Program-made: the position numbers and the translations under genes
Assembly (NCBI GenBank): GCA_017400455.1
Contig: JAFPTC010000142.1
Span: forward strand, 1 to 63,887
Length of the DNA stretch: 63,887 nt
Source: Prevotella sp.
GTDB taxonomy: Bacteria > Bacteroidota > Bacteroidia > Bacteroidales > Bacteroidaceae
Direction: 5' to 3'
The notes under the pieces: model-generated
Databases searched by the model: none
Told to the model about the DNA's origin: nothing
The model's input: the letters and a program-made list of their open reading frames with translations, nothing else
In this document: one piece after another, positions 2,717-63,077 of the stretch
Numbering within the stretch: the stretch's first letter is position 1
Layout of the letters: each line of letters starts with the position of its first letter

Positions 2717-2845
2717 TTCTCACGCGAGAAATTTTTCTGCGGAGGCTTCCCGTGAAAAAAACTCACGTGAGAAATTTTTCTGCGGAGGCCTCCCGTGAAA
2801 AAATCTCACGTGAGAAATTTTCACGGGAAGGCTCCCCCTTCCGGC
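2717..2845. repeat. CACGTG palindromic repeat cluster A (3 cores, period 43 bp)
   Basis: Three cores lie at 2719-2728 (CTCACGCGAG, one mismatch), 2762-2771 and 2805-2814 (CTCACGTGAG), exactly 43 bp apart. They are separated by AAATTTTTCTGCGGAGGC and TCCCGTGAAAAAA. The last core is extended on both sides into a near-palindrome reaching CCCGTGAAA and TTTCACGGG. The cluster lies between the tRNA-Arg 3' end and the rplU promoter, both on the minus strand. Together with the tRNA and its terminator it accounts for most of the gap between rplU and the DUF3078 gene. Short open frames across it are artefacts of the repeat. Confidence 0.9.
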
Positions 2846-2883
2846 GGGGCGCCCCCAGCCGCAAAAACGGCTTGGCAAAGGCA

Positions 2884-2926
2884 CAAAAGAAATCCGCAAG
2901 AAAACTAAAATTAGCTTCTTGCGGAT
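2884..2926 (-). terminator. Terminator downstream of tRNA-Arg
   Basis: On the minus strand an 11-bp perfect stem ATCCGCAAGAA/TTCTTGCGGAT (2916-2926 with 2892-2902) is followed by TTCTTTTG. It begins 8 nt after the tRNA 3' end, as expected for a single-tRNA transcript. Confidence 0.85.
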
Positions 2927-2933
2927 CTCTTTG

Positions 2934-3007
2934 TGACTCCGGCGGGATTCAAACCCACAACCTTCTGATCCGTAGTCAGATGCTCTATTCAGTTGAGCTA
3001 CGGAGCC
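2934..3007 (-). tRNA. tRNA-Arg (anticodon ACG)
   Basis: The minus strand folds as a cloverleaf. The acceptor is GGCTCCG/CGGAGTC with one G-T pair. The D arm is GCTCAACTGAATAGAGC. The anticodon stem TCTGA/TCAGA holds loop CTACGGA (anticodon ACG, reading CGU). The T arm is TGTGGGTTTGAATCCCGC. The discriminator is A and no CCA is encoded. It has its own promoter box and terminator, so it is a one-gene unit. Confidence 0.95.
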
Positions 3008-3027
3008 ATCCTTCTTGTTTGCGGGTG

Positions 3028-3035
3028 CAAAGGTA
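3028..3035 (-). promoter_or_regulatory. Promoter -7 box (TACCTTTG) for tRNA-Arg
   Basis: TACCTTTG on the minus strand lies 20 bp before the tRNA. The surrounding GCGGGTGCAAAGGTAC (plus-strand reading) is repeated exactly at the promoter of the tRNA cluster near 52241-52256, suggesting a shared tRNA promoter design. Confidence 0.75.
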
Positions 3036-3086
3036 CGCACTTTTTTTTATTCCACCAAACTTTTTCTCAACTTTTTTTCAAAAAAG

Positions 3087-4265
3087 CTAAAAATTATAGG
3101 AAAATCCCAGTGACGAATACTCTTTGAACTGCCAATAGCCCAGATCGTCGTCCCACATGTTGGAATCGTCGAAGCGTGGGAAGAGGAACAGATTGGCCGA
3201 AATATACTTCGACACACGCAGGGCAAAGGTGTTCTCCCACTCCAACTCTGCACGGTGGTAGCTGGTGAAAGCATAGAGGCGCGTCTTCCAGGTCACCACA
3301 TCGTTCATTTTCCATTCCAGGCCGGCCGTCACCTGCGAACCGAAGTCGGTCAGCGAGTGGGTGTGCTTGTCGGTCTTCACACCAAAGCTGGAGGCCAGGG
3401 CCGTGCGATCGACGTAACGATAGTTGATGGCCAAGGGCGAAAGGTTGATGGTGCCGGTGAGCTTCTTGTCGAAAGCCTCCACCTTGTATTCCATACCGAG
3501 ACCGACGTTGAAGTTAAACGGCGACATGAAGTCGGAGAAGGTCTTGACGTTGTTGGCCCTGAAACCACGGGCAAACTGGGTGTAGGCCAGCACCTGCAGC
3601 GTGTAGTACCATTTGTTGGCAGCCTGCAGGCCCACCTTGCCAGTGTAGCGGAACAGGTCTTCATTGGTCTTGAACTTATGCACGGTGTCGGTACGTGAGG
3701 TCTGGAAGCCCAGCTTCATCTCCAGCTTGTTGTCCCACCTCCACTTCGATTTGTTGTCGTAATTGGCTTCGAGGGTAAGGCTTCCCACGGCCGAGTAGTT
3801 GCTTTCACCACCTTTATACCAGTTCCCGCTGACGTAGTTCTGCATAAACTGCAGGTAGCCGTCGCCCTTGCGGGTCCAGAACTTGGGCTTTTCCACGACC
3901 ACCTCCACGGGGTCGGCCTCGGGGGCCTCGGGAAGGGGCTCGGCCTGGTCGACCATGGTCACCGCCTGTACAATGGGCTGCTCAATGATGTCCTGGCGCA
4001 GCTCGCCCGATGCCTCCTGCTCGGTTTCGGTTGCCTCCACCAGGTCGGGGCGGTTCAGGTAGACATGCATCAACGCCTGGTCGATGGCCTGGCTCACCTC
4101 GTCGGGATTATCGGAAGCTATTGACAACTGGTCGCCTGCCACCTCGTGATAGAACGTAAGCGGTGCAAACAACTTGAAATACTGCCCGTCAACGGAATCT
4201 TTCTCCTGTGCGGCACTGGCGCTGAGCGTCATGAAAGCCGCTAAAAACAATACTGATTTCTTCAT
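3087..4265 (-). CDS. DUF3078 domain outer-membrane-associated protein
   Basis: This 392-residue exported protein matches the Bacteroidetes DUF3078 family, whose function is unknown. The ATG at 4265 gives a clean signal peptide MKKSVLFLAAFMTLSASAAQ; an upstream in-frame codon adds only MQVV. After a variable acidic/proline region (about 95-130), the C-terminal two thirds is rich in alternating aromatic residues (YLQFMQNYVSGNWYKGGES, WRWDNKLEMKLGF, YYTLQVLAYTQFARGF) and ends in Phe (LGFSYNF), as expected for a beta-barrel. It has its own promoter box at 4275-4282. A role in the outer membrane is inferred from this architecture; no substrate can be named. Confidence 0.8.
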   Translation of the reverse strand: MKKSVLFLAAFMTLSASAAQEKDSVDGQYFKLFAPLTFYHEVAGDQLSIASDNPDEVSQAIDQALMHVYLNRPDLVEATETEQEASGELRQDIIEQPIVQAVTMVDQAEPLPEAPEADPVEVVVEKPKFWTRKGDGYLQFMQNYVSGNWYKGGESNYSAVGSLTLEANYDNKSKWRWDNKLEMKLGFQTSRTDTVHKFKTNEDLFRYTGKVGLQAANKWYYTLQVLAYTQFARGFRANNVKTFSDFMSPFNFNVGLGMEYKVEAFDKKLTGTINLSPLAINYRYVDRTALASSFGVKTDKHTHSLTDFGSQVTAGLEWKMNDVVTWKTRLYAFTSYHRAELEWENTFALRVSKYISANLFLFPRFDDSNMWDDDLGYWQFKEYSSLGFSYNF

Positions 4266-4274
4266 AACTACCTG

Positions 4275-4282
4275 CAAAGTTA
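4275..4282 (-). promoter_or_regulatory. Promoter -7 box (TAACTTTG) for the DUF3078 gene
   Basis: TAACTTTG on the minus strand ends only 9 bp before the chosen ATG at 4265, so the transcript would have a leader of just a few nucleotides. This supports that start. Confidence 0.65.
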
Positions 4283-4378
4283 CAAATAAAAATTGAGTAC
4301 GGATGGGTTGAAAGGAATAATTTTTGCATGTTGATGATATTTTTCACCTCGGCCACCCCCTTTTTCAATCTTTTTTCG

Positions 4379-4386
4379 TACCTTTG
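4379..4386 (+). promoter_or_regulatory. Promoter -7 box (TACCTTTG) for yidC
   Basis: TACCTTTG followed by CACC lies 63 bp upstream of the yidC ATG. It likely drives yidC and the two overlapping glycosyltransferase genes. Confidence 0.7.
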
Positions 4387-4449
4387 CACCTTGATTGTGG
4401 CTAAACGCCCTTCGCACGCGAACATTATTATATATAAATAAAAGCAGAA

Positions 4450-6324: not shown

Positions 6325-7214
6325 AGCGTCTGTCGGTCATCATCGTCACCTATCATTCGGAGAACGACATCTACGATTGCCTTCAGTCTTTCTGGCAACA
6401 TGCTGACATGGCCAGAGAGGAGCTGGAGGTGATTGTGGTTGACAACAGCCCCGAATCGGACACGATGTTCGACCGCTTGCGCCAACTCTATGGGCCAGAT
6501 ATTGTCCTCGTCCACAACACCCACAACGGAGGCTATGGGCAGGGCAACAACGTGGGCATCAGGCGGGCAACAGCTCCCGTAGTGATGATTATGAACCCCG
6601 ATGTCAGGCTTTGCGAGCCTGTGCTACAGTCTGCCCTGAAAGCCTTTGACAGCGACTCAAGACTCAGCCTTTACGGCATGAAGCAGATGTGCAACGAGCA
6701 GGAGCCAAGCCCCTACTCCGTTGTCTGCACCTACATGATGAACGGCTATCTCTTTACGCTGCTTACCAGCCTGGCCAACCGGCTGGACTTCTTCTGGCCC
6801 AAATACATGTACCTTTCGGGCTCATGTTTCTTTGCCCGGAAAGCCATGGTGGAGGCCGTGGGCATGTATGACGAGACAAATTTCATGTATGGAGAAGAGG
6901 ACGACCTTAGGCATCGCCTCATCTGCCAGTACGGCCCCAGCATGAAATACAATTCAAAGCTCCACTACATCCACCCCATGCACACGCGTCAGCCCGACAT
7001 TGAGTACGAAAAGAAACTCATTGACGCGGCCATCAAGATGAACGAGAAAAACGGCTATCCCCGCCGCCTGACCATCAAGAACCGCCTGCGTAACCTCCGC
7101 CTCCTCATCTGGCGCGAGGAACTGAAGCAGAGGCTTCATCGCGGTGAGCAGAAAAAGCTGGAAGTGATGAAGCAGAAGCGGGAATACCTTGTCCAAATAC
7201 TGAGGGAATCGTGA
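6321..7214 (+). CDS. Family 2 glycosyltransferase
   Basis: This 297-residue inverting GT-A glycosyltransferase is likely cytoplasmic and acts on surface polysaccharide. The fold is shown by the N-terminal LSVIIVTYHSENDIYDCLQSF-type nucleotide-binding strand, VIVVDNSPESD, the GGYGQGNNVGI segment and a metal-binding-like NPDVRL. Later MYGEEDDLRHRL resembles the acceptor-side acidic motif of rhamnosyltransferase-like GT2 enzymes. The C-terminus is a basic helix. The start overlaps the yidC stop, and its own stop overlaps the GTG of the next gene, implying translational coupling across three genes. Donor and acceptor sugars cannot be told from sequence. Confidence 0.85.
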   Translation: MKRLSVIIVTYHSENDIYDCLQSFWQHADMAREELEVIVVDNSPESDTMFDRLRQLYGPDIVLVHNTHNGGYGQGNNVGIRRATAPVVMIMNPDVRLCEPVLQSALKAFDSDSRLSLYGMKQMCNEQEPSPYSVVCTYMMNGYLFTLLTSLANRLDFFWPKYMYLSGSCFFARKAMVEAVGMYDETNFMYGEEDDLRHRLICQYGPSMKYNSKLHYIHPMHTRQPDIEYEKKLIDAAIKMNEKNGYPRRLTIKNRLRNLRLLIWREELKQRLHRGEQKKLEVMKQKREYLVQILRES

Positions 7215-8308: not shown

Positions 8309-8387
8309 TGGAAAAAGATTATGACAGAATGACGAAATAAAAGCCACATAAAGAACGTTATAAAATATAGAAACAACTATTAAAACT

Positions 8388-11380: not shown

Positions 11381-11466
11381 GGCCGAGTTTTGAAAAAAAG
11401 TCAACGCCGCGTGAAAAAATCTCACGTGAGATTTTTTTCTGGGAAGGCCTCCCGTGAAAAAGGGGT
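11381..11466. repeat. CACGTG palindromic repeat site B (1 core)
   Basis: One CTCACGTGAG core at 11421-11430 is flanked by GCCGCGTGAAAAAAT on the left and ATTTTTTTCTGGGAAGGCCTCCCGTGAAAAA on the right. A partial arm GGCCGAGTTTTGAAAAAAAG lies to the left. It fills most of the gap between the convergent heptose gene (ends 11320) and glycosyltransferase (ends 11508), where a bidirectional terminator would be expected. Confidence 0.88.
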
Positions 11467-24280: not shown

Positions 24281-24535
24281 ATGAAAAAAGGAATTCATCC
24301 AGACAACTATCGCCCCGTCGTGTTCCGTGACATGTCCAACGGCGATATGTTCCTTACGAAGTCTACTGCAAAGACCACTGACACCGTAGAATTCGAAGGC
24401 GAAACTTACCCAGTGGTAAAAGTCGAAATCTCCAGCTCTTCCCACCCCTTCTATACTGGTAAGAGCAAGCTCGTCGACACGGCCGGACGCGTCGATAAGT
24501 TCATGAGCCGCTACGGTAAGGCTGCGAAGAAGTAA
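24281..24535 (+). CDS. rpmE2: 50S ribosomal protein L31, type B
   Basis: This 84-residue bL31 is the zinc-free (C-minus) form. It starts [22 protein letters not shown] and contains [24 protein letters not shown], typical of type B. The Cys residues that bind zinc in type A L31 are absent. It has its own promoter and terminator, so it is an independent unit sitting between the OB-fold lipoprotein and the secreted nuclease. In many bacteria this form is used under zinc limitation, but Bacteroidetes often carry only this one; which applies here cannot be seen from the window. Confidence 0.96.
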
Positions 24536-24565
24536 GATATTCACACACACCACATGACTTATTAA

Positions 24566-24610
24566 GGTGCGTCCAAGGTAGTTGCATATGCCTTGTACGC
24601 ATCTTTTTTT
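24566..24610 (+). terminator. Terminator after rpmE2
   Basis: A 12-bp stem with one mismatch (GGTGCGTCCAAGG with CCTTGTACGCATC) around a 12-nt loop ends in TTTTTTT. It lies 30 bp past the L31 stop and immediately before the nuclease ATG, so the nuclease is read either by read-through or from a promoter not recognised here. Confidence 0.75.
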
Positions 24611-24621
24611 ACCACAAAAAC

Positions 24622-25554
24622 ATGAAACGGCTCCCCACCCTCTGCCCGCTGTTGCTCCTTGTTCCCTTGTTTCTGCTCAGCGCCTGCCACGACACCGGCG
24701 ACGATGACGACCCCTGGAGCACTCAGCCTACCGAAGCCCCCAACGCCAACCGCAACGACGCCAGCCAGGAGCCCAGCCTGTCGCGGCTGGAGTTTCCCCA
24801 TGTCAAGGGCGACGGCTCCATCGTGCTCATCCACACCACCAACGACCTCTTTGGCATCAACTACTCAGTGGAATGGGACTGCCAGAAGAAGTCGCAACGC
24901 TGGTCAGCCTATCAGCTGAACAGCTCCACCCTGCAGCGCAACACCTCCCGAGCCAACGTTGGCTATCCCTTCGACCCCCAGCTTCCCTCGCAGTATTATC
25001 TGAGTCAGGACTGCTTCTATAGCAGCGGCTTCGACCATGGCCACATCTGCCCCTCGGCCGACCGGCTCTATTCCAGCGAAGCCAACGAGCAGACGTTCTA
25101 CCTTACCAACATGCAGCCCCAGTATAAGGCTTTCAACGGCAGCCTATCAGGCAACGAGTCGTACAAGAACGACTGGAGTCCCTGGTTCAGGCTGGAGGGA
25201 CAGGTGCGCTCCTGGGCCAATGCCGCCACCACCGAAAACCTGTACGTGGTGAAGGGCGGAACCATTGAGGACCACCAGATTCTGCCCACGCTGGTGAAGG
25301 GCGAGATGCGCGTGCCAGCCTATTTCTTTGTGGCCCTGCTGCTTAAAAACGCCCAGGGCTATAAGGCCATCGGCTTCTGGATGGAGCATAAAAGCTCCTA
25401 CGAGAAGCAGGAGCCGTTGTCAGCCTATGCTGTGAACATCAGCGAGCTGGAGCAGAAGACTGGCATCGACTTTTTCTGCAATCTGCCCGACGACACCGAG
25501 CAACACATTGAGACGCTGGCCCGCGAAAACGTCTGCCGGGCGTGGGGTTTATAG
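24622..25554 (+). CDS. Secreted DNA/RNA non-specific endonuclease (NUC1 family lipoprotein)
   Basis: This 310-residue extracytoplasmic nuclease has lipobox LLSAC near residue 20, then a low-complexity Asp/Pro/Asn linker. The catalytic domain has the beta-beta-alpha-metal signature FDHGHICPSADR (D138, catalytic-type His 141; the family usually has DRGH, here DHGH). TFYLTNMQPQYKAFN and GNESYKNDW follow, where the conserved metal-binding Asn of the family lies. The family cuts both DNA and RNA, usually outside the cytoplasm. It sits just beyond L31 and two probable OB-fold lipoproteins and a TonB receptor, which suggests digestion of external nucleic acid before uptake. No immunity protein is seen next to it. 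Confidence 0.88.
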   Translation: MKRLPTLCPLLLLVPLFLLSACHDTGDDDDPWSTQPTEAPNANRNDASQEPSLSRLEFPHVKGDGSIVLIHTTNDLFGINYSVEWDCQKKSQRWSAYQLNSSTLQRNTSRANVGYPFDPQLPSQYYLSQDCFYSSGFDHGHICPSADRLYSSEANEQTFYLTNMQPQYKAFNGSLSGNESYKNDWSPWFRLEGQVRSWANAATTENLYVVKGGTIEDHQILPTLVKGEMRVPAYFFVALLLKNAQGYKAIGFWMEHKSSYEKQEPLSAYAVNISELEQKTGIDFFCNLPDDTEQHIETLARENVCRAWGL

Positions 25555-25574
25555 TCCCCCGACGAAGCCATTTT

Positions 25575-25722
25575 TTTCGGTGGAGGCGCCGCGTGAAAAT
25601 TTCTCACGTGAGATTTTTTTCTGGGAAGCCTCCGCGTGAAAATTTCTCACGTGAGATTTTTTTCTGGGAGGCCTCCGCGTGAAAATTTCTCACGTGAGAA
25701 ATTTTCATGGGAAGCCTCGCCA
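25575..25722. repeat. CACGTG palindromic repeat cluster C (3 cores, period 43 bp)
   Basis: CTCACGTGAG cores lie at 25603-25612, 25646-25655 and 25689-25698, spaced exactly 43 bp. The joining unit is ATTTTTTTCTGGGA(A/G)GCCTCCGCGTGAAAATTT. The last core has symmetric arms (GTGAAAATTT and AAATTTTCA). It fills the gap between the convergent nuclease gene (ends 25554) and the phytase-like gene (ends 25732). No ordinary terminator is seen there, so the repeat may act as one. Confidence 0.92.
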
Positions 25723-25731
25723 GCTTTACGA

Positions 25732-31727
<5,996 letters not shown>

Positions 31728-31772
31728 GTTAAGAGTTAAGAGTTTAGAATTAAGAGTTTAGAGTTGAGAGTT

Positions 31773-33332
31773 ATGAAACGTATATCTTTTGTCATTGGTC
31801 ATCTGTCATTGAGCGTAGCGCTGTTATTCACAGCCTGTTCGGGCGTGAGCATTCCTGAAAACTTTGCGCAGAGCGAAGAGCTGCCGCGCATCTACCCCGA
31901 CTATGCTGACGTGACCATTCCCGTGAACATTGCCCCATTGTCGTTCCAGCTGGAGGGGATGGAGGCTGAAGACGCCGTGGTGAGCTTCGCCGCCGGCGAC
32001 ATGCAGATTCTGTGTGGCGGACTGAAGGCCCAGCCCTCGATTGACGATTGGCATGCACTGGCCGAGAAAGCCAAAGGTGGCGACATCAACGTTGAGGTTT
32101 ACGCCAGCAAGGACGGCCATTGGACACGCTATCAGCCGTTTGCCATACACGTGTCGCCCGACAGCATAGACCCCTACATCAGCTACCGACTCATCTCGCC
32201 CAGCTATGTAACCTACGAGGAACTGACGCTGAACCAGCGCTGCCTGGAGAACTACGACGAGCAGGTGATGGTAGACAACATGCTTTGCTCTACCGAGAAG
32301 AACGGCCAGTGCGTGAACTGCCATAACTATCAGTGGTACAACCCTGAGCGCATGCAGTTCCACGCCCGCCAGAACCACGGCGGCACCGTCATTGCCTACG
32401 ACGGAAAGATTCGCAAGGTGAACATGAAGAACGACTCGGTCATCTCGGCTGGCGTTTATCCCACGTGGCACCCCACCCTGCCGCTCATCGTCTACTCCAC
32501 GAACCTGACCAGCCAGAGCTTCCATACGCGCAACGCTAACAAGATTGAGGTGAGCGATGCCGGCAGCGACCTCATTATCTACGACGTGGAGAAAGACCAG
32601 GTGGCCAACGTGGAGAACGACCCTGAGGAGTTTGAGGTATTCCCCTTCTGGGCGCCCGACGGCCGCACGCTCTACTACAGCAGCGCTCATTTCGTGTTCC
32701 GCGACACCACGTCGCATGCCGTGGAGGTGTTCAAGCGCGCCAGCGACGTGAAATACAACATCTACAGAAAGGCTTTCGACCCCGAGACGCGCCAGTTTGG
32801 GCCACGCGAGATGGTGTTCCAGGCCGACACGCTGGGCGCAGGCATCCTGGGCCTCGACACCCTACGCACCGACACGCTGGGCCTCAGCGCCACCCTGCCC
32901 CGCATCAGCCCCGACGGCCGCTACCTCATGTTCACCCTGGGCCGCTATGGCGTGTTCCACATCTGGCACCACGAGTCCGACCTGTGGCTGAAAGACCTGC
33001 AGACGGGAGCAGTGAGGTCCATGGACGAAATCAACTCAAAAGACACCGAGAGCTATCACTCCTGGTCGAGCAACGGCCGATGGGTCATCTTCAGCAGCCG
33101 TCGCACCGACGGCAACTTCACCCGCCCCTTCATTGCCCATGTTGACCAGGACGGCCACGGCTCGAAGCCCTTCGAACTGCCGCAGAAGGACCCGAACTAT
33201 CACCATGAGTTCATGAAGAGCTACAATATTCCCGAGTTTATGCGAGGTCCCGTCACCATCACGCCGCAGCAATTTGCCGACGTGCTGAAGAACGACGACG
33301 TGAAGCCCGCCCAGTTCGTGCCTCACCTGTAG
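31773..33332 (+). CDS. TolB/PD40-like beta-propeller lipoprotein with a CxxCH heme motif
   Basis: This 519-residue exported protein has a signal peptide ending in lipobox LLFTAC. The ATG at 31773 was chosen; an in-frame TTG at 31764 is less likely. The N-terminal 165 residues are a beta-sandwich-like region. Next comes GQCVNCHNYQW with C180-x2-C183-H184, the c-type heme attachment motif. PD40/TolB propeller blades follow (YPTWHPTLPLIVYSTN, FPFWAPDGRTLYYSSA, LPRISPDGRYLMFTLG, SYHSWSSNGRWVIFSSRR). Several His/Met residues could give the second heme ligand. It lies 45 bp after the DUF6057 gene. Whether heme is attached cannot be known from sequence. Confidence 0.8.
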   Translation: MKRISFVIGHLSLSVALLFTACSGVSIPENFAQSEELPRIYPDYADVTIPVNIAPLSFQLEGMEAEDAVVSFAAGDMQILCGGLKAQPSIDDWHALAEKAKGGDINVEVYASKDGHWTRYQPFAIHVSPDSIDPYISYRLISPSYVTYEELTLNQRCLENYDEQVMVDNMLCSTEKNGQCVNCHNYQWYNPERMQFHARQNHGGTVIAYDGKIRKVNMKNDSVISAGVYPTWHPTLPLIVYSTNLTSQSFHTRNANKIEVSDAGSDLIIYDVEKDQVANVENDPEEFEVFPFWAPDGRTLYYSSAHFVFRDTTSHAVEVFKRASDVKYNIYRKAFDPETRQFGPREMVFQADTLGAGILGLDTLRTDTLGLSATLPRISPDGRYLMFTLGRYGVFHIWHHESDLWLKDLQTGAVRSMDEINSKDTESYHSWSSNGRWVIFSSRRTDGNFTRPFIAHVDQDGHGSKPFELPQKDPNYHHEFMKSYNIPEFMRGPVTITPQQFADVLKNDDVKPAQFVPHL

Positions 33333-33347
33333 GAAAAGGACAGCCGC

Positions 33348-34046
33348 TTACTCGTAGTCGTCGATGACGGCGTTCATGAAGTCCATCATTGGCTTGGCCG
33401 CACGGAACACCCGTTCCATCTGGTCAAGCCATTTTTCTTGCCCGAAGAAGTCGTCGCCCACCTGATGCCAGGCGCAATAGTTCTTCAGCCGCAAATACTT
33501 CATGTGCTCATAATCGCGAGGGAAACCGGCCGGACAGGTCTTCAGCTTTTCCAGACCGAAGCCCTGAGGGCTGTCCCACGAGGCATCGTCGGGCGCGTCG
33601 AAAAAGCGCTTAAAGTCGCGGTTCTCCACGCAGCTCAGCCACTCTGCCTCGTTGGCCATCAGCTCGTTGCGGCAGGCCGTCAGGATGTTGGTAGGCAGCC
33701 AGTAGCTGCCCACGGCCAGCAGACAGTGGCCAGGCTCTATGTGGATGTAGTAGCCCCCACGAAGGGCTTTCTTTCCCTTGGCGCAGATATAGGCGCCGAA
33801 ATGGTTTTTATAGGGTGACTTATCGGGCGAGAAACGCGTATCGCGATAGAAACGATAGGTGCAGTCCTTCACAGTCTGGGAAGCCACTTCCGGGTCGAAG
33901 GCCACGATGCGCTTCAGCGCCTGCTCCACCCCCTGCTCCCATTCCTGGCGGGCAGCATCATATTCGTCCTTGTGAGCATGAAACCACTCACGATTGTTGT
34001 TCATAGCCACACGGCTGAGGAAAGTAAGTATTTTCTTTGAGTCCAT
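33348..34046 (-). CDS. DUF2461 domain-containing protein
   Basis: This 232-residue cytoplasmic protein belongs to the DUF2461 (TIGR02453) family of unknown function. Typical segments are the N-terminal NNNREWFHAHKDEYDAARQEWE, RFYRDTRFSPDKSPYKNHFGAYIC and GGYYIHIEPGHCLLAVGSYWLP. There is no signal peptide or membrane segment. It is monocistronic and divergent from nth: the promoter boxes (34073-34080 minus and 34114-34121 plus) are 33 bp apart. It converges with the propeller-lipoprotein gene 15 bp away. Confidence 0.88.
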   Translation of the reverse strand: MDSKKILTFLSRVAMNNNREWFHAHKDEYDAARQEWEQGVEQALKRIVAFDPEVASQTVKDCTYRFYRDTRFSPDKSPYKNHFGAYICAKGKKALRGGYYIHIEPGHCLLAVGSYWLPTNILTACRNELMANEAEWLSCVENRDFKRFFDAPDDASWDSPQGFGLEKLKTCPAGFPRDYEHMKYLRLKNYCAWHQVGDDFFGQEKWLDQMERVFRAAKPMMDFMNAVIDDYE

Positions 34047-34072
34047 AGATTGATTTTTCTTCTTTTTTCCTG

Positions 34073-34080
34073 CAAAAGTA
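34073..34080 (-). promoter_or_regulatory. Promoter -7 box (TACTTTTG) for the DUF2461 gene
   Basis: TACTTTTG on the minus strand lies 26 bp before the ATG at 34046. The identical octamer serves nth on the other strand. Confidence 0.7.
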
Positions 34081-34113
34081 ATAAAAAAGAATGGTATTCC
34101 GAAAAAAAATGCC

Positions 34114-34121
34114 TACTTTTG
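34114..34121 (+). promoter_or_regulatory. Promoter -7 box (TACTTTTG) for nth
   Basis: TACTTTTG ends 8 bp before the ATG at 34130, so the mRNA would be almost leaderless. It also rules out the longer frame start at 34091, which lies upstream of the box. Confidence 0.7.
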
Positions 34122-34129
34122 CACTTATT

Positions 34130-34780
34130 ATGAGGAGAACAGAAAGATACCAACTGGTCTTAGACCACTTTCGCAAGGACAAGCCCGAAGTTAATACGGA
34201 GCTAACGTTTGGCAGCAACTTCCAGCTGCTGGTGGCCGTGGTGCTCAGCGCCCAGTGTACCGACAAGCGGGTAAACCAGGTGACGCCCGCACTGTTTCAT
34301 CGCTATCCCGATGCGCGCAGCATGGCCGAGGCCGAGCCGGAGGACGTGCTGGAATATGTGAGCAGCGTGAGCTATCCCAACTCGAAGGCCCTCCACTTGG
34401 TGCAGCTGTCGCGCATGCTGATGGAACGCTACGACGGAGAGGTGCCCGGCGACATGGACCAGCTGCTGCAGCTGCCTGGCGTGGGCCGCAAGACGGCCAA
34501 CGTGATGCAGGCCGTGGCTTTCGGACGCTCGGCCATGGCCGTCGATACGCACGTGTTTCGCGTCAGCCACCGGCTGGGGCTGGTGCCTCCAACAGCCAAC
34601 ACGCCGCTGAAGGTGGAGCGCGAGCTGATGAAGCATATTCCCGAGGACGACGTGCCCCGCGCCCATCACTGGCTGCTGCTCCACGGGCGCTACGTGTGTA
34701 CCTCGCGCAAGCCCCACTGCCAGCGCTGTCCCTTCGCCACCTTCTGCCCTTACGGCACGAAGGAGGCCAAGCTTCGTTAG
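34130..34780 (+). CDS. nth: Endonuclease III
   Basis: Nth is the base-excision-repair glycosylase/lyase for oxidised pyrimidines. The 216-residue protein has the helix-hairpin-helix LPGVGRKTANV with catalytic Lys 121 and the essential Asp 139 in VDTHVFRVSHRLG. The C-terminal [4Fe-4S] loop is C190-x6-C197-x2-C200-x5-C206. All catalytic and cluster residues are present and the length is standard. The start at 34130 (MRRTERYQLVLDHF) fits the family and the promoter position. A 62-bp palindrome from repeat cluster D follows its stop and may terminate it. Confidence 0.97.
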   Translation: MRRTERYQLVLDHFRKDKPEVNTELTFGSNFQLLVAVVLSAQCTDKRVNQVTPALFHRYPDARSMAEAEPEDVLEYVSSVSYPNSKALHLVQLSRMLMERYDGEVPGDMDQLLQLPGVGRKTANVMQAVAFGRSAMAVDTHVFRVSHRLGLVPPTANTPLKVERELMKHIPEDDVPRAHHWLLLHGRYVCTSRKPHCQRCPFATFCPYGTKEAKLR

Positions 34781-34820
34781 CATCCAGACAGCCTTCGGCA
34801 AGAGGGCATCGGCTTACAGA

Positions 34821-34947
34821 AATCTGCGGAGGCTTCCCGTGAAAAAATCTCACGTGAGATTTTTTCACGGGAAGCCTCCGCAGAATTACGGGAAGCCTCC
34901 GCAGAATTACGGGAAGCCTCCGCAGAATCACGGGAAGCCTCGCCAGT
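34821..34947. repeat. CACGTG repeat site D: perfect 62-bp palindrome plus 21-bp tandem repeats
   Basis: The core CTCACGTGAG at 34849-34858 is the centre of a perfect palindrome spanning 34823-34884, with two 31-bp arms (TCTGCGGAGGC..., revcomp ...GCCTCCGCAGA). To the right, the outer arm ACGGGAAGCCTCCGCAGAATT recurs every 21 bp (ACGGG at 34867, 34888, 34909 and 34930). It lies between the convergent nth (ends 34780) and PpiD-like (ends 35036) genes. As RNA it would form a very stable hairpin on either strand. Confidence 0.95.
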
Positions 34948-34960
34948 ATTTTTCAGCACG

Positions 34961-34999
34961 CAAAAAAAGAGCCAGCCCCACGAGAAATGAGGCTGGCTC
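34961..34999 (-). terminator. Terminator for the PpiD-like gene
   Basis: On the minus strand GAGCCAGCC/GGCTGGCTC (34991-34999 with 34969-34977) with a 13-nt loop is followed by TTTTTTTG. It lies about 37 bp past the stop at 35036. Confidence 0.9.
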
Positions 35000-35035
35000 C
35001 TATGATAATGATTAAATGTTATTTCTACCGAACGC

Positions 35036-37231
35036 TTAGAACTGGTAGCGGTTGTCCTGCACCTTAGCCTTCTCCATCAGGACGTCGAAGAGCGTGGTGT
35101 AGGGGTTGTACTGGTTGGGAGTGAGCGACGAGAGGGCGCGCTGGATGAGCTTGTTCTCCTGTTCGCGACGGTCGAAGGCTGTACCCTCCTTGGCATCACG
35201 GCTCACAACATTGAAGAGGAACACGCCGTTGGTGCCCTTGACCACATGGCTCACGGTCTTGCCCACCTCGGTGGTGGCAACAGCTCCACTCAGTCCGCTC
35301 TCGCGCTGACCCTTCACGCTGACGGTGGCAGGGAAGGTGATGTGGCGGATGGTGTCGACCAGTGCGCCCTTGGCCTGAGCCTCGGCAACGGTCTTGGCAC
35401 CGCCCAGCTTCTGAATGAGCATGTCGGCCTTCTTATCCTTCAGCACCTCAGCACGCAGATAGTCCTCCACGCTCTGCTGGTCGAGATAGCCTACGGGGTG
35501 AACCTTGGTCACGGCCACGGCCACGAAGCGGCCATCGGCACTGTTCTGATAGATTTCCGAGATGCTGCCCTCGCTGGCCTGGGCAAAAGCCCACTTCACG
35601 GCCTCGCGGGTGTTGGCCAGGGCCGAAGGAGTACCAATGGTGTTGGCATTGCTGCGCAGGTTCTTCTGCTCCATCACCTGGAAACGCTGCTGAGCATACT
35701 TGGTCACGTTCTGATCCATGTCGGCGGGTGTCTTGCACTCGCTGAGGAACTTGCTGAACTCGTTGAACATGTTCTCGTAGGTGTCGTTAGAGAAACGCAC
35801 TTCGTTGCTCACGATGGCCACGTCATAGAGGGTCACGGCAGGACGATGGTCGCCCACGACGTAGAGCATGACCTGGTTGCTGAGCTTCAGCTGCTGAGGA
35901 ACGCCGGGAGTGGCGTTGTGGATGGCATTGAAGACGGCCTTGTCGTCAGGAGTAATGGTCTCCTGGCTCTGGTAGGCGTTGGCGCTGAGCCAGTTCTTGG
36001 CTGCGGGCTGACCAAACTTGGCAGCCACAGAGTCGATGGGCTGACCACCCTTGATGACGGCGATCAAGCTGTCGGCGCGCTGCTGAGCATCCTCGAAGCT
36101 CTGGCCAGGCACGCTGATGAACTGATAGCTGATGGAGTCGATGCCCTGATAGCGGCGGTTCAGACGAACCACGGCCATGTGGTCGACCATCTTGCCCGAC
36201 AGGTAGCTGCTGTAGGTGATAGGATTGGTGACGCCCATCTCGCTGAGCGAGTCGATGGCAGCGAAGAGTGCGGGAGAAATCTGACGCAGTCCGGCTGCAT
36301 TGTAGGGCATGCCCTCGTGGTAGCTGATGGTAGAGCGATGAGAGGCCAGGATGTCGGCCACGCTCTTCAAGCTGTCGTTACGCAGCTCCTCAGCAGCCTC
36401 AAGCAGTCCGTTGCGCAGGGCAGTGAGGTCAGCCTCGGAGGGAACGATGTTGCACACGGCATACTTAATGTCGCGGGTCTCGGTGTTCCACTTGAAGCTG
36501 TTCTTCTGCTGTTCATACTTGGCCTTGAGGTCGGCGTCAGAGATTTGCACGTCGTTGTCGTTGATGGTGGAATAAGCCAACGAAGCCAGCTCAATGGTAG
36601 CCTCGCTGTTGCTGCCTTCGAAGGCCAGCTTGGCCGAAGCCTCGTTGCTGAGCATGCAGGCTTCGAGCAGCTCCATGTACTTCGACGACAGGAGTTGGCG
36701 GCGCAGCATCTTCTCAACGGTCTTCCAGTAGCGGTCGAACTCCTCGTACTGCTCGGGAGCCTGCTGCTGGAGATAGGTGTAGACCTGGGCCACGTTGTTA
36801 TAGTCGAAGGCGCCGGTCTGCTGGTTATAGAACACGGGAAGCATGGGCATGTTGCCCATCTGGAGCAGGGGATGAGTGCCCGAAGCGAGGATGATCTTCA
36901 TCTCGTCGTCAGTAACGCCCAGACCGAGCTTCTCGGCCTCCTCTGCAACGATAGTGTTGCGCACATAGTCGTTCCACACGAATTCGCGCAGCTGGTCCTC
37001 GTCAACGTCCTGACCCAACTGCTTGAACACATTCTTGTACTCTTCGATGGTACTCTGATAGTCCTGAATGGACAATTTGCTACCCATCACTTCACCTACT
37101 TGCTGGCGAGCCTGATTGCTTGAGGTCTCGCACGAGCGCGTAAAGTCTGTCGCAATGAAGCCGAACAAAGCCAGACCGATAATACCTACCAGCCAAGGCC
37201 CCCAGCTTCTGATTTTTCCAATTGCTGCCAT
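35036..37231 (-). CDS. Periplasmic peptidyl-prolyl isomerase/chaperone (PpiD/SurA-N type)
   Basis: This 731-residue membrane-anchored folding factor for exported proteins has an N-terminal anchor (about 10-28, WGPWLVGIIGLALFGFIATDF). A SurA-N-like helical chaperone region follows (residues about 45-230: QDYQSTIEEYKNVFKQLGQ, LREFVWNDYVRNTIVAEEAEKLG). One or two parvulin-like modules lie in the centre (LNRRYQGIDSISYQFISV, DSLIAVIKGGQPIDSVAAKFG) and a helical C-terminus ends NRYQF. The architecture equals PpiD. Its own promoter box lies at 37284-37291, 89 bp from the upstream GldE-like gene in the envelope block, so it may be read alone or with it. Confidence 0.88.
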   Translation of the reverse strand: MAAIGKIRSWGPWLVGIIGLALFGFIATDFTRSCETSSNQARQQVGEVMGSKLSIQDYQSTIEEYKNVFKQLGQDVDEDQLREFVWNDYVRNTIVAEEAEKLGLGVTDDEMKIILASGTHPLLQMGNMPMLPVFYNQQTGAFDYNNVAQVYTYLQQQAPEQYEEFDRYWKTVEKMLRRQLLSSKYMELLEACMLSNEASAKLAFEGSNSEATIELASLAYSTINDNDVQISDADLKAKYEQQKNSFKWNTETRDIKYAVCNIVPSEADLTALRNGLLEAAEELRNDSLKSVADILASHRSTISYHEGMPYNAAGLRQISPALFAAIDSLSEMGVTNPITYSSYLSGKMVDHMAVVRLNRRYQGIDSISYQFISVPGQSFEDAQQRADSLIAVIKGGQPIDSVAAKFGQPAAKNWLSANAYQSQETITPDDKAVFNAIHNATPGVPQQLKLSNQVMLYVVGDHRPAVTLYDVAIVSNEVRFSNDTYENMFNEFSKFLSECKTPADMDQNVTKYAQQRFQVMEQKNLRSNANTIGTPSALANTREAVKWAFAQASEGSISEIYQNSADGRFVAVAVTKVHPVGYLDQQSVEDYLRAEVLKDKKADMLIQKLGGAKTVAEAQAKGALVDTIRHITFPATVSVKGQRESGLSGAVATTEVGKTVSHVVKGTNGVFLFNVVSRDAKEGTAFDRREQENKLIQRALSSLTPNQYNPYTTLFDVLMEKAKVQDNRYQF

Positions 37232-47667: not shown

Positions 47668-47710
47668 CTCGGCACATCCAGCCATTTTTCTGGGGTGCCG
47701 AGTTTTTTTT
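47668..47710 (+). terminator. Terminator after the ABC ATPase gene
   Basis: Stem CTCGGCAC/GTGCCGAG (47668-47675 with 47695-47702), with an inner CCAG/CTGG pair, is followed by eight T residues. The right arm GCCGAG and T-tract are the start of the 21-bp repeats of cluster E. Confidence 0.88.
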
Positions 47711-47816
47711 CTGCGGGGCCGAGATTTTTTTCTGGGAGGCCGAGATTTTTTTCTGGGGAGGCTCCGCGTGAAAAAATCTCACGTGAGATTTTTTCAAGAG
47801 TCGGCCTCCCATGATT
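47697..47816. repeat. CACGTG palindromic repeat site E with 21-bp tandem repeats
   Basis: GCCGAG followed by TTTTTTT and CTG recurs at 47697, 47718 and 47739 (period 21 bp). A final GGGGAGGCTCCGCGTGAAAAAAT then leads to core CTCACGTGAG at 47778-47787. The right side is ATTTTTTCAAGAGTCGGCCTCCC. The array lies in the 368-bp gap between the ABC ATPase and HU genes; the rest of that gap holds only the terminator and the HU promoter. Confidence 0.9.
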
Positions 47817-57014: not shown

Positions 57015-57031
57015 CACCTCGAAAACAATAC

Positions 57032-58832: not shown

Positions 58833-58848
58833 GTGAAGGATTTTTGAG

Positions 58849-60174: not shown

Positions 60175-61381
60175 GATTATCAACGACCCCGTCTTCGGGT
60201 TCATCCGCATACCCCGTGGCTTACTCTACGACATTGTTTCCCATCCTTTGTTCCAGCGTCTGAACCGCATCAACCAGCTGGGCCTGGCCTCAGTGGTCTA
60301 TCCCGGTGCGCGTCACACTCGTTTCCAACACTCTCTGGGAGCTTTCCACCTCATGAGCGAAGCCATTCTCTCCCTTCGTCAGAAGGGCCAGTTCATCTTC
60401 GACAGTGAAGCCGAGGCCGTCCAGGCCGCCATCCTGATGCACGACATAGGCCACGGGCCTTTCTCGCATGTTCTTGAGAACACCCTCATCCACGGCATCT
60501 CTCACGAAGACATCTCGCTGCTCATGATGGAGCAGATCAACCACGACCTGCACGACCAGTTGGGCATGGCCATCGCCATTTTCCGCGACGAATATCCCAA
60601 GCGATTCCTCCACCAGCTCATCTCCAGCCAGCTCGACATGGACCGTCTGGACTACCTGCGTCGCGACTCCTTCTTCACTGGCGTCACCGAAGGCAACATC
60701 GGTTCAGCCCGCATCATCAAAATGCTCAATGTCATTGACGACCGCCTCGTGGTTGAGCAGAAAGGCATCTATTCGCTGGAAAACTATCTCACCACCCGCC
60801 GACTGATGTACTGGCAGGTGTACCTTCACAAGACGGCTGTAGCCTACGAGAAAGTCCTTGTCAACATGCTCCGGCGGGCCAAGGCCCTCACCCGCCAGGG
60901 CGAAGAGCTCTTTGCATCGCCCGCCCTGTCCTATTTCCTTCACAACGATGTGGATGCCCAGTGGTTCAACAGCCACGAAGAGGCATTGCGCATGTATGAG
61001 GAACTTGACGACAGCGACATCTGGAGTGCCATGAAGGCCTGGCGCCATTCCTCCGACCGCATCCTGGCCACCCTGGCGGCTGACATGCTCGACCGCCGCA
61101 TCTTCCGCGTAGAAGTGCACGAGCATCCCATTGCCGAAGAGCGCATAGCCAGCCTACAGAGCGAAATAGCACAAAAAATGGGCATCCCCTATGAGGAAGC
61201 CCCCTACCTGATGAGTGTTGTCACCCTGAGCAAGGACATGTATTCTGCCGACGAGGATTCCATTGACATCCTCTATAAAGACGGCACCATCCGCCCCATC
61301 ACCCAGGCCTCTGAACTGCTCAACGTCGAACTGCTTTCACGCAAAGTCAGCAAATACTATCTCTGCTACCAACGGCTCTAA
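60161..61381 (+). CDS. HD domain phosphohydrolase (dNTPase-like)
   Basis: This 406-residue cytoplasmic protein has an HD metal site: the first His in ARHTRFQHSLGAFHL, then MHDIGHGPFSH with His94-Asp95, and a later Asp in SQLDMDRLDYLRRDS. The family includes SAMHD1-like deoxynucleotide triphosphohydrolases and other HD proteins. The helical C-terminal half (LRRAKALTRQGEELFASP) is typical. Activity on dNTPs is possible but not certain. It overlaps tilS (14 bp) and converges with the sigma factor gene, overlapping it by 4 bp. Confidence 0.87.
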   Translation: MSEVKIINDPVFGFIRIPRGLLYDIVSHPLFQRLNRINQLGLASVVYPGARHTRFQHSLGAFHLMSEAILSLRQKGQFIFDSEAEAVQAAILMHDIGHGPFSHVLENTLIHGISHEDISLLMMEQINHDLHDQLGMAIAIFRDEYPKRFLHQLISSQLDMDRLDYLRRDSFFTGVTEGNIGSARIIKMLNVIDDRLVVEQKGIYSLENYLTTRRLMYWQVYLHKTAVAYEKVLVNMLRRAKALTRQGEELFASPALSYFLHNDVDAQWFNSHEEALRMYEELDDSDIWSAMKAWRHSSDRILATLAADMLDRRIFRVEVHEHPIAEERIASLQSEIAQKMGIPYEEAPYLMSVVTLSKDMYSADEDSIDILYKDGTIRPITQASELLNVELLSRKVSKYYLCYQRL

Positions 61382-62049
61382 TGTTCTCTGAACACTTTGC
61401 GCATCTTGCGCACGGCGTGATCTCTGATCTGCCTCACGCGTTCACGCTTCAGCCCCATGTCAGCAGCTATCTCGGCCATTGTCTGATGTTCCTGTCCTAT
61501 GCCGAAATAGGCCGTCACCACGCGGTCTTCACGCTCATCCAGACTTCTTAGCGCCCTTTCCACCTGCTCCTCCTGGCTTCTGCTGTAAGTACGCCCGTCG
61601 GCCAGTGGCGAACTGCCGTCGACCAGCACCGAGAGCAGGTTCAGATTTGGTTTTGCCCCCAGCGGAGCGTCGAGCGAGCGTTTCTGTCCGTCGCCTCGGC
61701 TCTCCACCATTGTCTCAGAGCTTTCCCGCTGCAAGGCCTTTTCCATGGCCCTGCGCACATACACGGCGGCATAGCCGGCAAAACGCAGTCCCCGCGAAGC
61801 GTCAAACTTCCCCGCAGCCTTTATCAGTCCCATGTTTCCTTCGCTAATCAGGTCGTCCATGGCCAGTCCCTTGCCCTGATACTCCCGCGCCACATGGGCC
61901 ACCAGCCTCAGGTTAGCCTCCACCAGTCGGTTCTTAGCTCTTTCGTCGCCTTTCAACACCTTGGCCGACAGTTCGCGTTCCTGCTCCTCACTGAGCAGTT
62001 GCCTGCTGCCCATCTCCTCAAAGTATTTCTGTAGTCGGTTTTCTTCCAT
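61378..62049 (-). CDS. Short sigma-70 family RNA polymerase sigma factor
   Basis: This 223-residue sigma factor is about 60 residues shorter than the usual Bacteroidetes RpoD. It opens like region 1.2 (NRLQKYFEEMGSRQLLSEEQERELSAKV). Region 2 follows (RLVEANLRLVAHVAREYQGKGLAMDDLISEGNMGLIKAAGKFD, then RGLRFAGYAAVYVRRAMEKAL). Region 3 is very short, and region 4 with its helix-turn-helix ends the protein (TMAEIAADMGLKRERVRQIRDHAVRKMRK). The region 2.4 sequence differs from the primary type at several aromatic positions, so its promoters may differ from TAnnTTTG. It is monocistronic, with promoter box 62069-62076, convergent with the HD gene. Confidence 0.9.
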   Translation of the reverse strand: MEENRLQKYFEEMGSRQLLSEEQERELSAKVLKGDERAKNRLVEANLRLVAHVAREYQGKGLAMDDLISEGNMGLIKAAGKFDASRGLRFAGYAAVYVRRAMEKALQRESSETMVESRGDGQKRSLDAPLGAKPNLNLLSVLVDGSSPLADGRTYSRSQEEQVERALRSLDEREDRVVTAYFGIGQEHQTMAEIAADMGLKRERVRQIRDHAVRKMRKVFREH

Positions 62050-62068
62050 TCTTCATCTTTTTTGCATG

Positions 62069-62076
62069 CAAAGATA
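62069..62076 (-). promoter_or_regulatory. Promoter -7 box (TATCTTTG) for the sigma factor gene
   Basis: TATCTTTG on the minus strand lies 19 bp before the ATG at 62049. Confidence 0.72.
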
Positions 62077-62236
62077 CAACTTTTTCCGCTGAATACTCAA
62101 ACTAAGCAAATCTTTTTTTATCATCACCCGCAACTATTCGCAGAAGGCCGACGGGTGTCGGCGCGGATTCTCGCTCTTTTTCGTAACGATTTGTAAATTT
62201 ATAGAGGATATTGGTTTTAATCTCCAAAATAATTGT

Positions 62237-62244
62237 TATCTTTG
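62237..62244 (+). promoter_or_regulatory. Promoter -7 box (TATCTTTG) for the DUF4160-DUF2442 pair
   Basis: TATCTTTG lies 30 bp before the DUF4160 ATG at 62275. It excludes the longer frame start at 62233. Confidence 0.72.
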
Positions 62245-62274
62245 CACCCACAGAACGATAAAACGAAAGAGATT

Positions 62275-62532
62275 ATGCCGGAAATCTGTAAATTCTTTGG
62301 AATCATCATCAGCCTCTACTGGCGCGACCACAATCCGCCGCATATCCACTTCACTTACGGCGAATACGAGTGTACCATCAGCGTGTTCGACCGTGTGGTG
62401 AGCGGCAAGGCCCCGTCGAAGGTGATTGCTAAGGTGAATGAGTGGATGGACCTGCACGAGGCTGAAATCCTCACCCTTTGGGAGAAGGCCCAGAAGGGCG
62501 AGAAACTGGGAAGAATCGAGCCTCTTCGATAA
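62275..62532 (+). CDS. DUF4160 domain protein
   Basis: This 85-residue protein begins MPEICKFFGIIISLYWRDHNPPHIHFTYGEYECTI, the whole DUF4160 signature (PPHIHF), and ends KLGRIEPLR. No catalytic residue set is known for the family. It lies 56 bp upstream of a DUF2442 gene; the two families are often adjacent and have been suggested to form toxin-antitoxin-like pairs. Which would be the toxin cannot be told. The start at 62275 fits both the family and the promoter. Confidence 0.85.
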   Translation: MPEICKFFGIIISLYWRDHNPPHIHFTYGEYECTISVFDRVVSGKAPSKVIAKVNEWMDLHEAEILTLWEKAQKGEKLGRIEPLR

Positions 62533-62588
62533 GCGAGAGCAGAAGAGGAAGAATGAATATTCAAACACTTAATAAGGAGGACACAGAT

Positions 62589-62822
62589 ATGCTTAAAGTT
62601 ACCGATGTAGATTATGTGAAGGACTATGAACTGCTGCTCACCTTCAACGACGGCACGCGCAAGCTCTGCGACCTGAAGCCCTACCTGACGGGCGAGGTAT
62701 TCGGTGAGCTGCTCGACCTCGACAAGTTCACTCAGTATGGCCTCACTGGCTATACCATTGAGTGGGCTAATGGTGCCGATCTTGCCCCCGAGTTCCTACA
62801 CGATATAGGAAGGGCGGCGTAA
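62589..62822 (+). CDS. DUF2442 domain protein
   Basis: This 77-residue protein starts MLKVTDVDYVKDYELLLTFNDG, the standard DUF2442 beginning. That start has a strong Shine-Dalgarno AAGGAGG at 62574-62580, eight bases upstream, which is uncommon in this phylum. An earlier in-frame ATG at 62553 is less likely. The rest (LCDLKPYLTGEVFGEL, IEWANGADLAPEFL) fits the family. It is probably a partner of the DUF4160 protein, and the unit ends in a strong terminator at 62841-62892. Confidence 0.85.
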   Translation: MLKVTDVDYVKDYELLLTFNDGTRKLCDLKPYLTGEVFGELLDLDKFTQYGLTGYTIEWANGADLAPEFLHDIGRAA

Positions 62823-62840
62823 TAAGTAAATGGGAGAAAC

Positions 62841-62892
62841 AAAGGGCGGGAAGCCGAGGACGACGGTTGTCGACTTCGGCTTCCCGCCCTTT
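62841..62892 (+). terminator. Strong terminator after the DUF4160-DUF2442 pair
   Basis: A 17-bp perfect stem AAAGGGCGGGAAGCCGA/TCGGCTTCCCGCCCTTT with an 18-nt loop is followed by TTACGG. It is GC-rich and lies 18 bp past the DUF2442 stop. Confidence 0.9.
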
Positions 62893-62984
62893 TACGGCCC
62901 TCAGAATGAAAGAAAAAGGAGTGGTTTTGCGGGCAGAGCTGGCTGAAATGTGCGAGTGGAGGCAGAGGGAAAATTATCACCGCT

Positions 62985-63077
62985 ATTCTGCGTGAAAATT
63001 TCTCACGTGAGATTTTTTCACGCGGAGGCTTCCCAGAAAAATTTCTCACGTGAGATTTTTTCACGGGAAGCCTCCTC
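62985..63077. repeat. CACGTG palindromic repeat cluster F (2 cores, period 43 bp)
   Basis: CTCACGTGAG cores at 63002-63011 and 63045-63054 are exactly 43 bp apart. The linker is ATTTTTTCACGCGGAGGCTTCCCAGAAAAATTT, and right of the second core is ATTTTTTCACGGGAAGCCTCC. It lies in the 452-bp gap between the DUF2442 and glyA genes, after the terminator and before the duplicated glyA promoter. The 90 bp between the terminator and the cluster show no gene or other pattern I recognise. Confidence 0.92.

What the first reader, a model, noticed from the sequence alone, without database searches (positions are those of the whole stretch)
2717..63077. An interspersed family of CACGTG palindromic repeats, eleven cores at six intergenic sites
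Seen directly: CTCACGTGAG (one copy with a single mismatch) occurs at 2719, 2762, 2805, 11421, 25603, 25646, 25689, 34849, 47778, 63002 and 63045, and none of these lies in a gene. Wherever cores are tandem they are exactly 43 bp apart. The arms (CGTGAAAAAAT, TTTTTTCACG, GGAAGCCTCCGC) are shared between sites. The six sites are about 9-15 kb apart. Three lie between convergent genes, two in same-strand gaps, and one follows a tRNA. Fixed period, intergenic restriction and sequence conservation across 60 kb suggest a maintained element: a REP/BIME-like mobile repeat, a terminator family or a protein-binding array. No associated transposase is in the window.
Basis: seen in the sequence. Interest (0 to 1): 0.8.

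Follow-up and report, generated by a model that had tools for sequence, protein, structure and literature searches.

The report
Species-specific phased intergenic palindrome arrays
A Prevotella-like bacterium has scattered hundreds of nearly identical short palindromic repeats between its genes, kept well apart from one another, and a close relative carries the same design with a different centre, which points to a fast-evolving, self-spreading or protein-bound DNA element.

Summary
In detail: the eleven cores are where stated, and the genome holds 350 exact CTCACGTGAG. In 857 kb sampled, 130 exact cores form 68 arrays; 0 of 130 lie in a predicted gene, and 59 of 62 neighbour pairs are 43 bp apart. 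Each core (P1) alternates with a second, variable palindrome (P2) about 21.5 bp away.

The family is species-specific: a flanked pattern occurs 294 times here and 3 times in the other 397 genus genomes searched. A near relative, Prevotella sp. RGIG8062, has the same layout with core CTCGTACGAG: 93 copies there, 0 here.

Arrays avoid each other: of 35 neighbour distances none is below 3.6 kb, against about 9-14 expected.

Terminators fit poorly, since divergent gaps carry arrays too. RAYT-REP membership is not met: no Y1 transposase was found here, and the relative's RAYT-like gene has other palindromes beside it.

Best explanation: a young, non-autonomous REP/BIME-like element that spread recently by an unidentified enzyme and grew in tandem. 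Main rival: a phased protein-binding or topology array. New variant of a known kind.

The parts
2711..2837 (.). array 1: cores 2719-2728 (CTCACGCGAG, degenerate), 2762-2771, 2805-2814; P2 palindromes 2739-2751, 2782-2794, 2825-2837; between tRNA-Arg and the ribosomal protein L21 gene
   Evidence: (TRF period 43)
11387..11459 (.). array 2: single core 11421-11430, P2 11441-11453, left arm with a GAGTTTTGAAAAAAAGTC variant; convergent gap
25575..25718 (.). array 3: cores 25603-25612, 25646-25655, 25689-25698 with two linkers; convergent gap
34824..34945 (.). array 4: single core 34849-34858 in a long perfect palindrome, followed by P2-only 21-bp tandem repeats 34867-34941; convergent gap between HhH-GPD and SurA_N genes
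47685..47812 (.). array 5: 21-bp tandem repeat 47685-47758 plus single core 47778-47787; ABC ATPase - HU gap, 452 bp here, 210-264 bp between aligned flanks and without an element in nine relatives
   Evidence: nine relatives; eight of them aligned
62991..63077 (.). array 6: cores 63002-63011 and 63045-63054, one linker; upstream of the SHMT gene

Best explanation
A young, non-autonomous, REP/BIME-like interspersed element. The unit is a 10-bp palindrome (P1, CTCACGTGAG) flanked by A/T tracts, with a second quasi-palindrome (P2, about GGGAAGGCCTCCC) 21.5 bp away, and it grows head-to-tail as a polar 43-bp unit. Copies spread through the genome after this species split from its relatives, by an enzyme that was not identified. 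Copies survive only where harmless: outside genes, away from start codons, and not close to one another. Shown: copy number, architecture, polarity, species restriction, intergenic and spaced distribution, one empty orthologous site. Inferred: mobility, the trans-acting enzyme, and purging as the cause of the distribution.
For: 350 exact copies here, 0-8 in 35 same-genus species; flanked pattern 294 here, 3 in 397 others. Site 47778: the syntenic ABC-HU gap lacks an element and is about 190-240 bp shorter in nine relatives (eight aligned). Conversely one divergent gap empty here holds the relative's version. Near-identity of copies: outside predicted genes 130 exact, 7 one-mismatch and 41 two-mismatch cores, the last mostly at chance level I think. 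Tandem growth: 43 bp in 59 of 62 neighbour pairs, and linkers agree in polarity in 10 of 10 arrays with two readable linkers. Start codons avoided: cores at least 95 bp from the downstream start in 27 same-strand gaps and at least 61 bp in 11 divergent gaps. A relative has a separate burst with another core.
Against: No mobilising enzyme identified; only the Y1 family was searched for genome-wide, other transposases were not. No target-site duplication: longest flank repeats mean 3.65 in 68 arrays, shuffled 3.74. A 151-bp array has no match in 72,556 plasmid or 50,697 phage records. Fixed helical spacing and the lack of close pairs are not predicted by plain selfish spread. Exact insertion ends could not be fixed, because intergenic DNA is too diverged; in the second comparison one relative without the element (G083) also has a long gap.
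Confidence: 0.5

Rival explanations
1. A phased protein-binding array with a chromosomal role (nucleoid folding, gyrase or topological-domain site). A dimeric protein binds P1, P2 lies on the same face of the helix two turns away, and arrays are placed every 11-14 kb or so.
For: P1-P2 centre distance 21.5 bp in 119 of the 176 arms whose P2 matched (rest 20.5-22.5; 260 arms examined), and in 13 of 13 matched arms of the relative (38 examined) although P2 differs. In this genome and its close kin G248, G083 and G116 the listed P1 centres are palindromic (ACGT, GTAC, GCGC). The arms of one core are less complementary than re-paired arms: 39 of 130 long extensions against 54.9 expected, so hairpin pairing is not what is kept. 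Spacing: 0 of 35 distances below 3.6 kb against 8.6-13.6 expected, and 0 of 28 against 7.1 with class- and length-matched gaps. Divergent gaps are used.
Against: No binding protein identified. The family is absent from nearly all congeners searched, so no essential role. Lack of close pairs can also come from loss by recombination. In 10 of the 13 other genomes with a TCTCNNNNGAGA match the centre is not palindromic, and a few degenerate G248 copies are not either. The P2 patterns were written after seeing the sequences.
Confidence: 0.26
2. REP/REPIN mobilised by a RAYT (Y1) transposase.
For: Copy number, intergenic location and palindromes fit; Y1 matches exist in 5 of 12 close genomes, one of them the relative with the other core.
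Against: No Y1_Tnp in this genome (71% complete). The relative's RAYT-like gene (24.4 bits, cut-off 23) is flanked by other inverted repeats (GGCTGGATTTGCAATCCAGCC) and no TCTCNNNNGAGA in the 3.2-kb locus. GTAG or CGTC near 1 and 6 of 130 cores. Units are head-to-tail, not alternating.
Confidence: 0.1
3. Bidirectional intrinsic terminators or 3'-end RNA hairpins.
For: AAAAAAUCUCACGUGAGAUUUUUU folds to -7.9 kcal/mol; three copies in 24500-35100 score as terminator-like. Convergent gaps are the richest class: 22 of 57, 1.63 arrays per kb against 0.71 same-strand and 0.53 divergent, and no divergent gap under 300 bp (0 of 51) has one.
Against: 11 divergent gaps carry arrays, 11 of 24 at 300 bp or more, five of them with Pfam-supported genes on both sides; allowing for array length the rates are 11 of 40 divergent, 8 of 20 convergent, 17 of 47 same-strand. 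The two arms of a core are less complementary than chance pairing.
Confidence: 0.08
4. Binding sites of ParB (parS), or a restriction or uptake signal.
For: The core shares TCACGTGA with parS as recalled.
Against: No TTTCACGTGAAA in the 857-kb sample; arrays on 28 of the 30 sampled contigs over 9 kb; CACGTG is not rare in genes (176); 0 of 130 cores in genes, unlike uptake signals as recalled.
Confidence: 0.03
5. Assembly or binning artefact.
For: Metagenome-like assembly, 160 contigs, 71% complete; 9 of 50 listed sites of the relative lie within 700 bp of a contig start.
Against: 60 of 68 arrays lie between two called genes on a contig; a second genome shows the sister family.
Confidence: 0.02

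Closest known systems
REP / BIME elements, GTAG and CGTC super-families (PMC3733652, abstract and passages seen)
   Same: Short palindromes, high copy, intergenic, composite arrays, some families species-specific; most copies in same-strand and convergent gaps (here 49 of 60)
   Different: No tag motif, head-to-tail polar units, two different alternating palindromes, long divergent gaps also used, no close pairs of arrays, no RAYT found
BrickBuilt and MITE464/PgRS of Porphyromonas gingivalis (PMC4596501, abstract and section 7 part 1 seen)
   Same: Same order of bacteria (recalled); tandem repeats of 23 and 41 nt; species-restricted; BrickBuilt is intergenic
   Different: 19 BrickBuilt copies with IS5-type terminal inverted repeats, leader and tail; here hundreds of copies, no such ends recognised, no TSD, 43-bp unit built on two palindromes
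REPINs (PMC8049555, abstract seen)
   Same: Population of repeated sequences inside one genome
   Different: RAYT dependence of REPINs is recalled; here no RAYT found and arm complementarity is not kept
TACTCACGTGAGTA sites in IMG/VR contigs
   Same: Same 10-mer; 21 bp apart in L252 and L257
   Different: Other arms, two to four sites per contig stretch; unrelated family; the operator role is my inference

Membership tests
RAYT-associated REP/REPIN | Y1 (RAYT) transposase in the genome | tested here: not met
   PF01797 0 matches in G000; genome 71% complete
RAYT-associated REP/REPIN | RAYT gene flanked by the repeat | tested here: not met
   In the relative G248 the Y1 gene is flanked by other palindromes; no Y1 gene here to look at
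GTAG/CGTC-tagged REP | GTAG or CGTC tag beside the palindrome | tested here: not met
   1 and 6 of 130 cores have one within about 35 nt, either strand
BIME | palindromic units in alternating orientation | tested here: not met
   10 of 10 arrays with two readable linkers are head-to-tail
REP-like repeats in the wide sense | high copy, short, palindromic, extragenic | tested here: met
   350 copies; 0 of 130 exact cores in predicted genes
MITE | terminal inverted repeats with target-site duplication | tested here: not met
   No excess of flank direct repeats in 68 arrays; element ends only roughly known
MITE | parent IS sharing the ends | not tested
   857 kb of 2.54 Mb held; no search for other transposases near the arrays
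Intrinsic terminator family | restricted to gene 3' ends | tested here: not met
   11 of 75 divergent gaps carry arrays; five pairs checked by Pfam
parS | TGTTTCACGTGAAACA-type sequence (recalled) | tested here: not met
   0 matches in the 857-kb sample
Known structured RNA | Rfam match at gathering score | tested here: not met
   five tRNAs are the only matches in the window
Protein-binding array | bound by a host protein | not testable with these tools
   needs binding assays

The most novel reading that the evidence does not exclude
The arrays are spaced architectural sites: a fast-evolving dimeric protein binds P1, with P2 on the same helical face two turns away, and each array marks the edge of a topological or nucleoid domain of roughly 11-14 kb. 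Close species swap the P1 centre (ACGT, GTAC, GCGC) together with the protein's specificity, like a dialect, while the 21.5-bp geometry and the kilobase-scale spacing are kept.
Probability: 0.18. Interest if true: 0.88.

Novelty: new variant of a known kind. Interest (0 to 1): 0.57.

Why it matters
Here is a large palindromic repeat family without a detected RAYT, with fixed helical geometry, directional arrays, a nearly complete core swap between two close species, and spacing that excludes close pairs. The two species make a long-open question testable: do such repeat populations spread as parasites, or are they placed by selection for chromosome architecture?

Tried and rejected
Terminators: fit poorly. 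RAYT mobilisation: not supported. MITE with TSD: no flank duplication. parS, restriction site, uptake signal: not supported. Plasmid or phage origin: no match for one 151-bp array; no TCTCACGTGAGATTTTTT in IMG/VR; 7 IMG/VR contigs with paired CTCACGTGAG have unrelated arms. Stronger selection on the core than on the rest of the unit: I could not show it; conserved linker positions are about as invariant as the core. Array orientation against transcription or along contigs: no clear bias. A-tract test (248 of 260 arms AnTm): weak, because most arms are two inherited variants. Regularity by coefficient of variation alone: not significant (0.67 against 0.81, interval 0.61-1.02). The lack of close pairs is significant, although 3.6 kb was chosen after seeing the minimum. 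In the relative, 3 of 19 sampled cores fall in ORFs of my gene caller. Genus-wide 20-22-bp tandem repeats are suggestive only, since the ORF mask was crude. nth-surA and rbfA-metK are not neighbours in the relatives where both were placed, so those sites gave no empty-site test.

Full report
CHECK. The eleven cores are at the stated coordinates, ten exact and one with a mismatch, far above shuffles. The sites, ORFs, tRNAs and Pfam hits show all eleven between genes: three sites in convergent gaps, two in same-strand gaps, one between tRNA-Arg and the L21/L27 genes.

GENOME. The window is contig C135 of a 2.54-Mb, 160-contig assembly, 71% complete, with 350 exact CTCACGTGAG; the reversed control pattern has 0. 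The genus is Prevotella by inference: the same-genus genome G248 has its matches at the same places as G422, the genome of the record titled Prevotella sp. RGIG8062, water-buffalo rumen.

ANATOMY. I took 856,807 bp of this genome (34%, of which 41,066 are N) and called 618 genes with a home-made hexamer caller. It holds 130 exact cores in 68 arrays: 20 with one core, 36 with two, 10 with three, 2 with four. Of 62 neighbouring cores closer than 300 bp, 59 are 43 bp apart and one each 42, 44 and 86. Between cores lies a 33-bp linker with a second quasi-palindrome (P2), mostly built of half-modules GGGAAG, GGGAGG or GCGGAG around one base. P2 matched a simple pattern in 176 of 260 arms; its centre is 21.5 bp from the P1 centre in 119 and 20.5-22.5 in the rest. 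Linkers are directional: CAC on one side and TCT on the other in 53 of 59; all 10 arrays with two readable linkers are head-to-tail. Of 93 exact P2 motifs, 91 lie outside genes within 60 bp of a core, 1 outside genes within 300 bp, and 1 in a gene far from any core.

HAIRPIN PAIRING IS NOT WHAT IS KEPT. Perfect copies fold strongly as RNA, but the two arms of a core are less complementary than randomly re-paired arms: 39 of 130 long extensions against a mean of 54.9 (95% range 46-64), mean arm identity 15.3 against 16.2 of 26.

WHERE IT SITS. 0 of 130 exact cores lie in predicted genes; of 19 one-mismatch cores 12 do, of 197 two-mismatch cores 156 do. Of 333 gaps of 30 bp or more, 60 carry an array: 22 of 57 convergent, 27 of 201 same-strand, 11 of 75 divergent. 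Per kb convergent gaps are richest (1.63 against 0.71 and 0.53), and no divergent gap under 300 bp has one (0 of 51). At 300 bp or more the figures are 7 of 13, 18 of 32 and 11 of 24; since an array lengthens its own gap, I also took its length off: at 200 bp or more left over, 8 of 20 convergent, 17 of 47 same-strand, 11 of 40 divergent. The other 8 of 68 arrays are not between two called genes. Five of the 11 divergent pairs were scanned and both genes have Pfam support in each; one other left neighbour, in L139, looks to me like a false ORF. Cores keep at least 95 bp from the downstream start in same-strand gaps and at least 61 bp from either start in divergent gaps.

SPACING. On shared contigs 35 neighbour distances have a minimum of 3,645 bp. 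Random choice among gaps, 16 settings of 2,000 draws, expects 8.6-13.6 below 3.6 kb and no draw gave zero. With weights matched to gap class and leftover length, 28 distances, 7.1 expected and no draw of 5,000 gave zero; the 5-kb count agrees (4 seen, 9.9 expected, P 0.002). The threshold was set after seeing the minimum, but the test is nearly one on the minimum itself. The coefficient of variation alone is not significant. In G248, 17 distances among the first 50 listed sites have a minimum of 4,843 bp: consistent, but weak at that density. Nulls were drawn within the same contigs or over all of them; contig breaks at repeats do occur (9 of 50 listed G248 sites within 700 bp of a contig start).

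RELATIVES. AWWTCTCACGTGAGAWWT: 294 here, 2 in G248, 1 in G367, 0 in the other 395 of 398 genus genomes. AAATCTCNNNNGAGATTT: 86 here, 93 in G248, 1-5 in 13 others, 0 in 383. The listed G248 centres are GTAC; G083 has two such copies and G116 one with GCGC, G367 one with ACGT; in the other 10 genomes the centre is not palindromic and the matches are probably unrelated. CTCGTACGAG: 93 in G248, 0 here, 0-3 in nine other close genomes, where the reversed control gives 2-9, so those are chance level. TCTCACGTGAGA occurs twice in G248 (as G422). The two species thus use nearly exclusive cores. In G248, 13 arms (of 38) matched a P2 pattern written from its own sequences, all at 21.5 bp. The 50 listed G248 cores are single, with none 43 bp apart; some other G248 copies have degenerate centres. 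Of 19 G248 cores in fetched stretches, 3 fall in called ORFs, 7 lie at stretch edges, 4 in same-strand, 3 in convergent and 2 in divergent gaps. Other relatives show 20-22-bp tandem repeats with their own sequences.

EMPTY SITES. The ABC-HU gap (site 47778) is 452 bp here and 210-264 bp between aligned flanks, without an element, in G174, G269, G275, G083, G248, G338, G321, G385 and G116; eight of the nine were aligned (not G321). The divergent gap 4265-4449, empty here, holds the G248 core in G248 (456 bp); G083 has a long gap there too, without the core. Among eight orthologous gaps compared with G248, none carries an element in both (6 neither, 1 each): few, but in line with separate gains.

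MECHANISM. I favour a young non-autonomous repeat: recent species-specific burst, near-identical copies, tandem growth of a polar 43-bp unit, survival only in permissive intergenic places. The mobilising enzyme is unknown. Y1 transposase was not found here, G248's Y1 gene has other palindromes beside it, other transposases were not searched, and no TSD was seen. The helical geometry shared by two species, the lack of arm pairing and the absence of close pairs fit a protein-bound array better; that is the main rival and the most novel reading. Loss of close pairs by recombination could give the spacing without function.

LITERATURE. Searches listed nothing that I recognised as this family; the library is partial and most papers were seen as listings only. 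Seen further: PMC4596501 (abstract, section 7 part 1), PMC3733652 (abstract, passages), PMC8049555 (abstract), PMC6006769 (passages). PMC4596501 mentions 22-, 23- and 41-nt tandem direct repeats in P. gingivalis; PMC3733652 reports REPs mainly in same-strand and convergent gaps. Gyrase and IHF binding by BIMEs, and the parS sequence, are recalled.

Noticed in passing
L126 16580-16860; window about 63077-63180: A second high-copy repeat that contains a promoter-like TTTTTTCGTAACTTTG; dozens of hits at 71-98% identity in G248, G174, G083 and G275. The window resemblance was judged by eye.
   Followed up: partly
L126 16193-16315: A palindromic repeat of the CTCCCCTTGAAGGGAGGGG type with a few listed matches in relatives.
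   Followed up: no
L249 (G248:C62): RAYT-like Y1 gene flanked by its own palindromes (GGCTGGATTTGCAATCCAGCC), distinct from the CTCGTACGAG family.
   Followed up: partly
L252, L257 and five other IMG/VR loci: CTCACGTGAG pairs with unrelated arms, TACTCACGTGAGTA in most, 21 bp apart in L252 and L257; they look like phage repressor operators.
   Followed up: no
window 34867-34941 and 47685-47758: 21-bp tandem repeats attached to single-core arrays, as if the P2-side unit can also multiply alone.
   Followed up: partly
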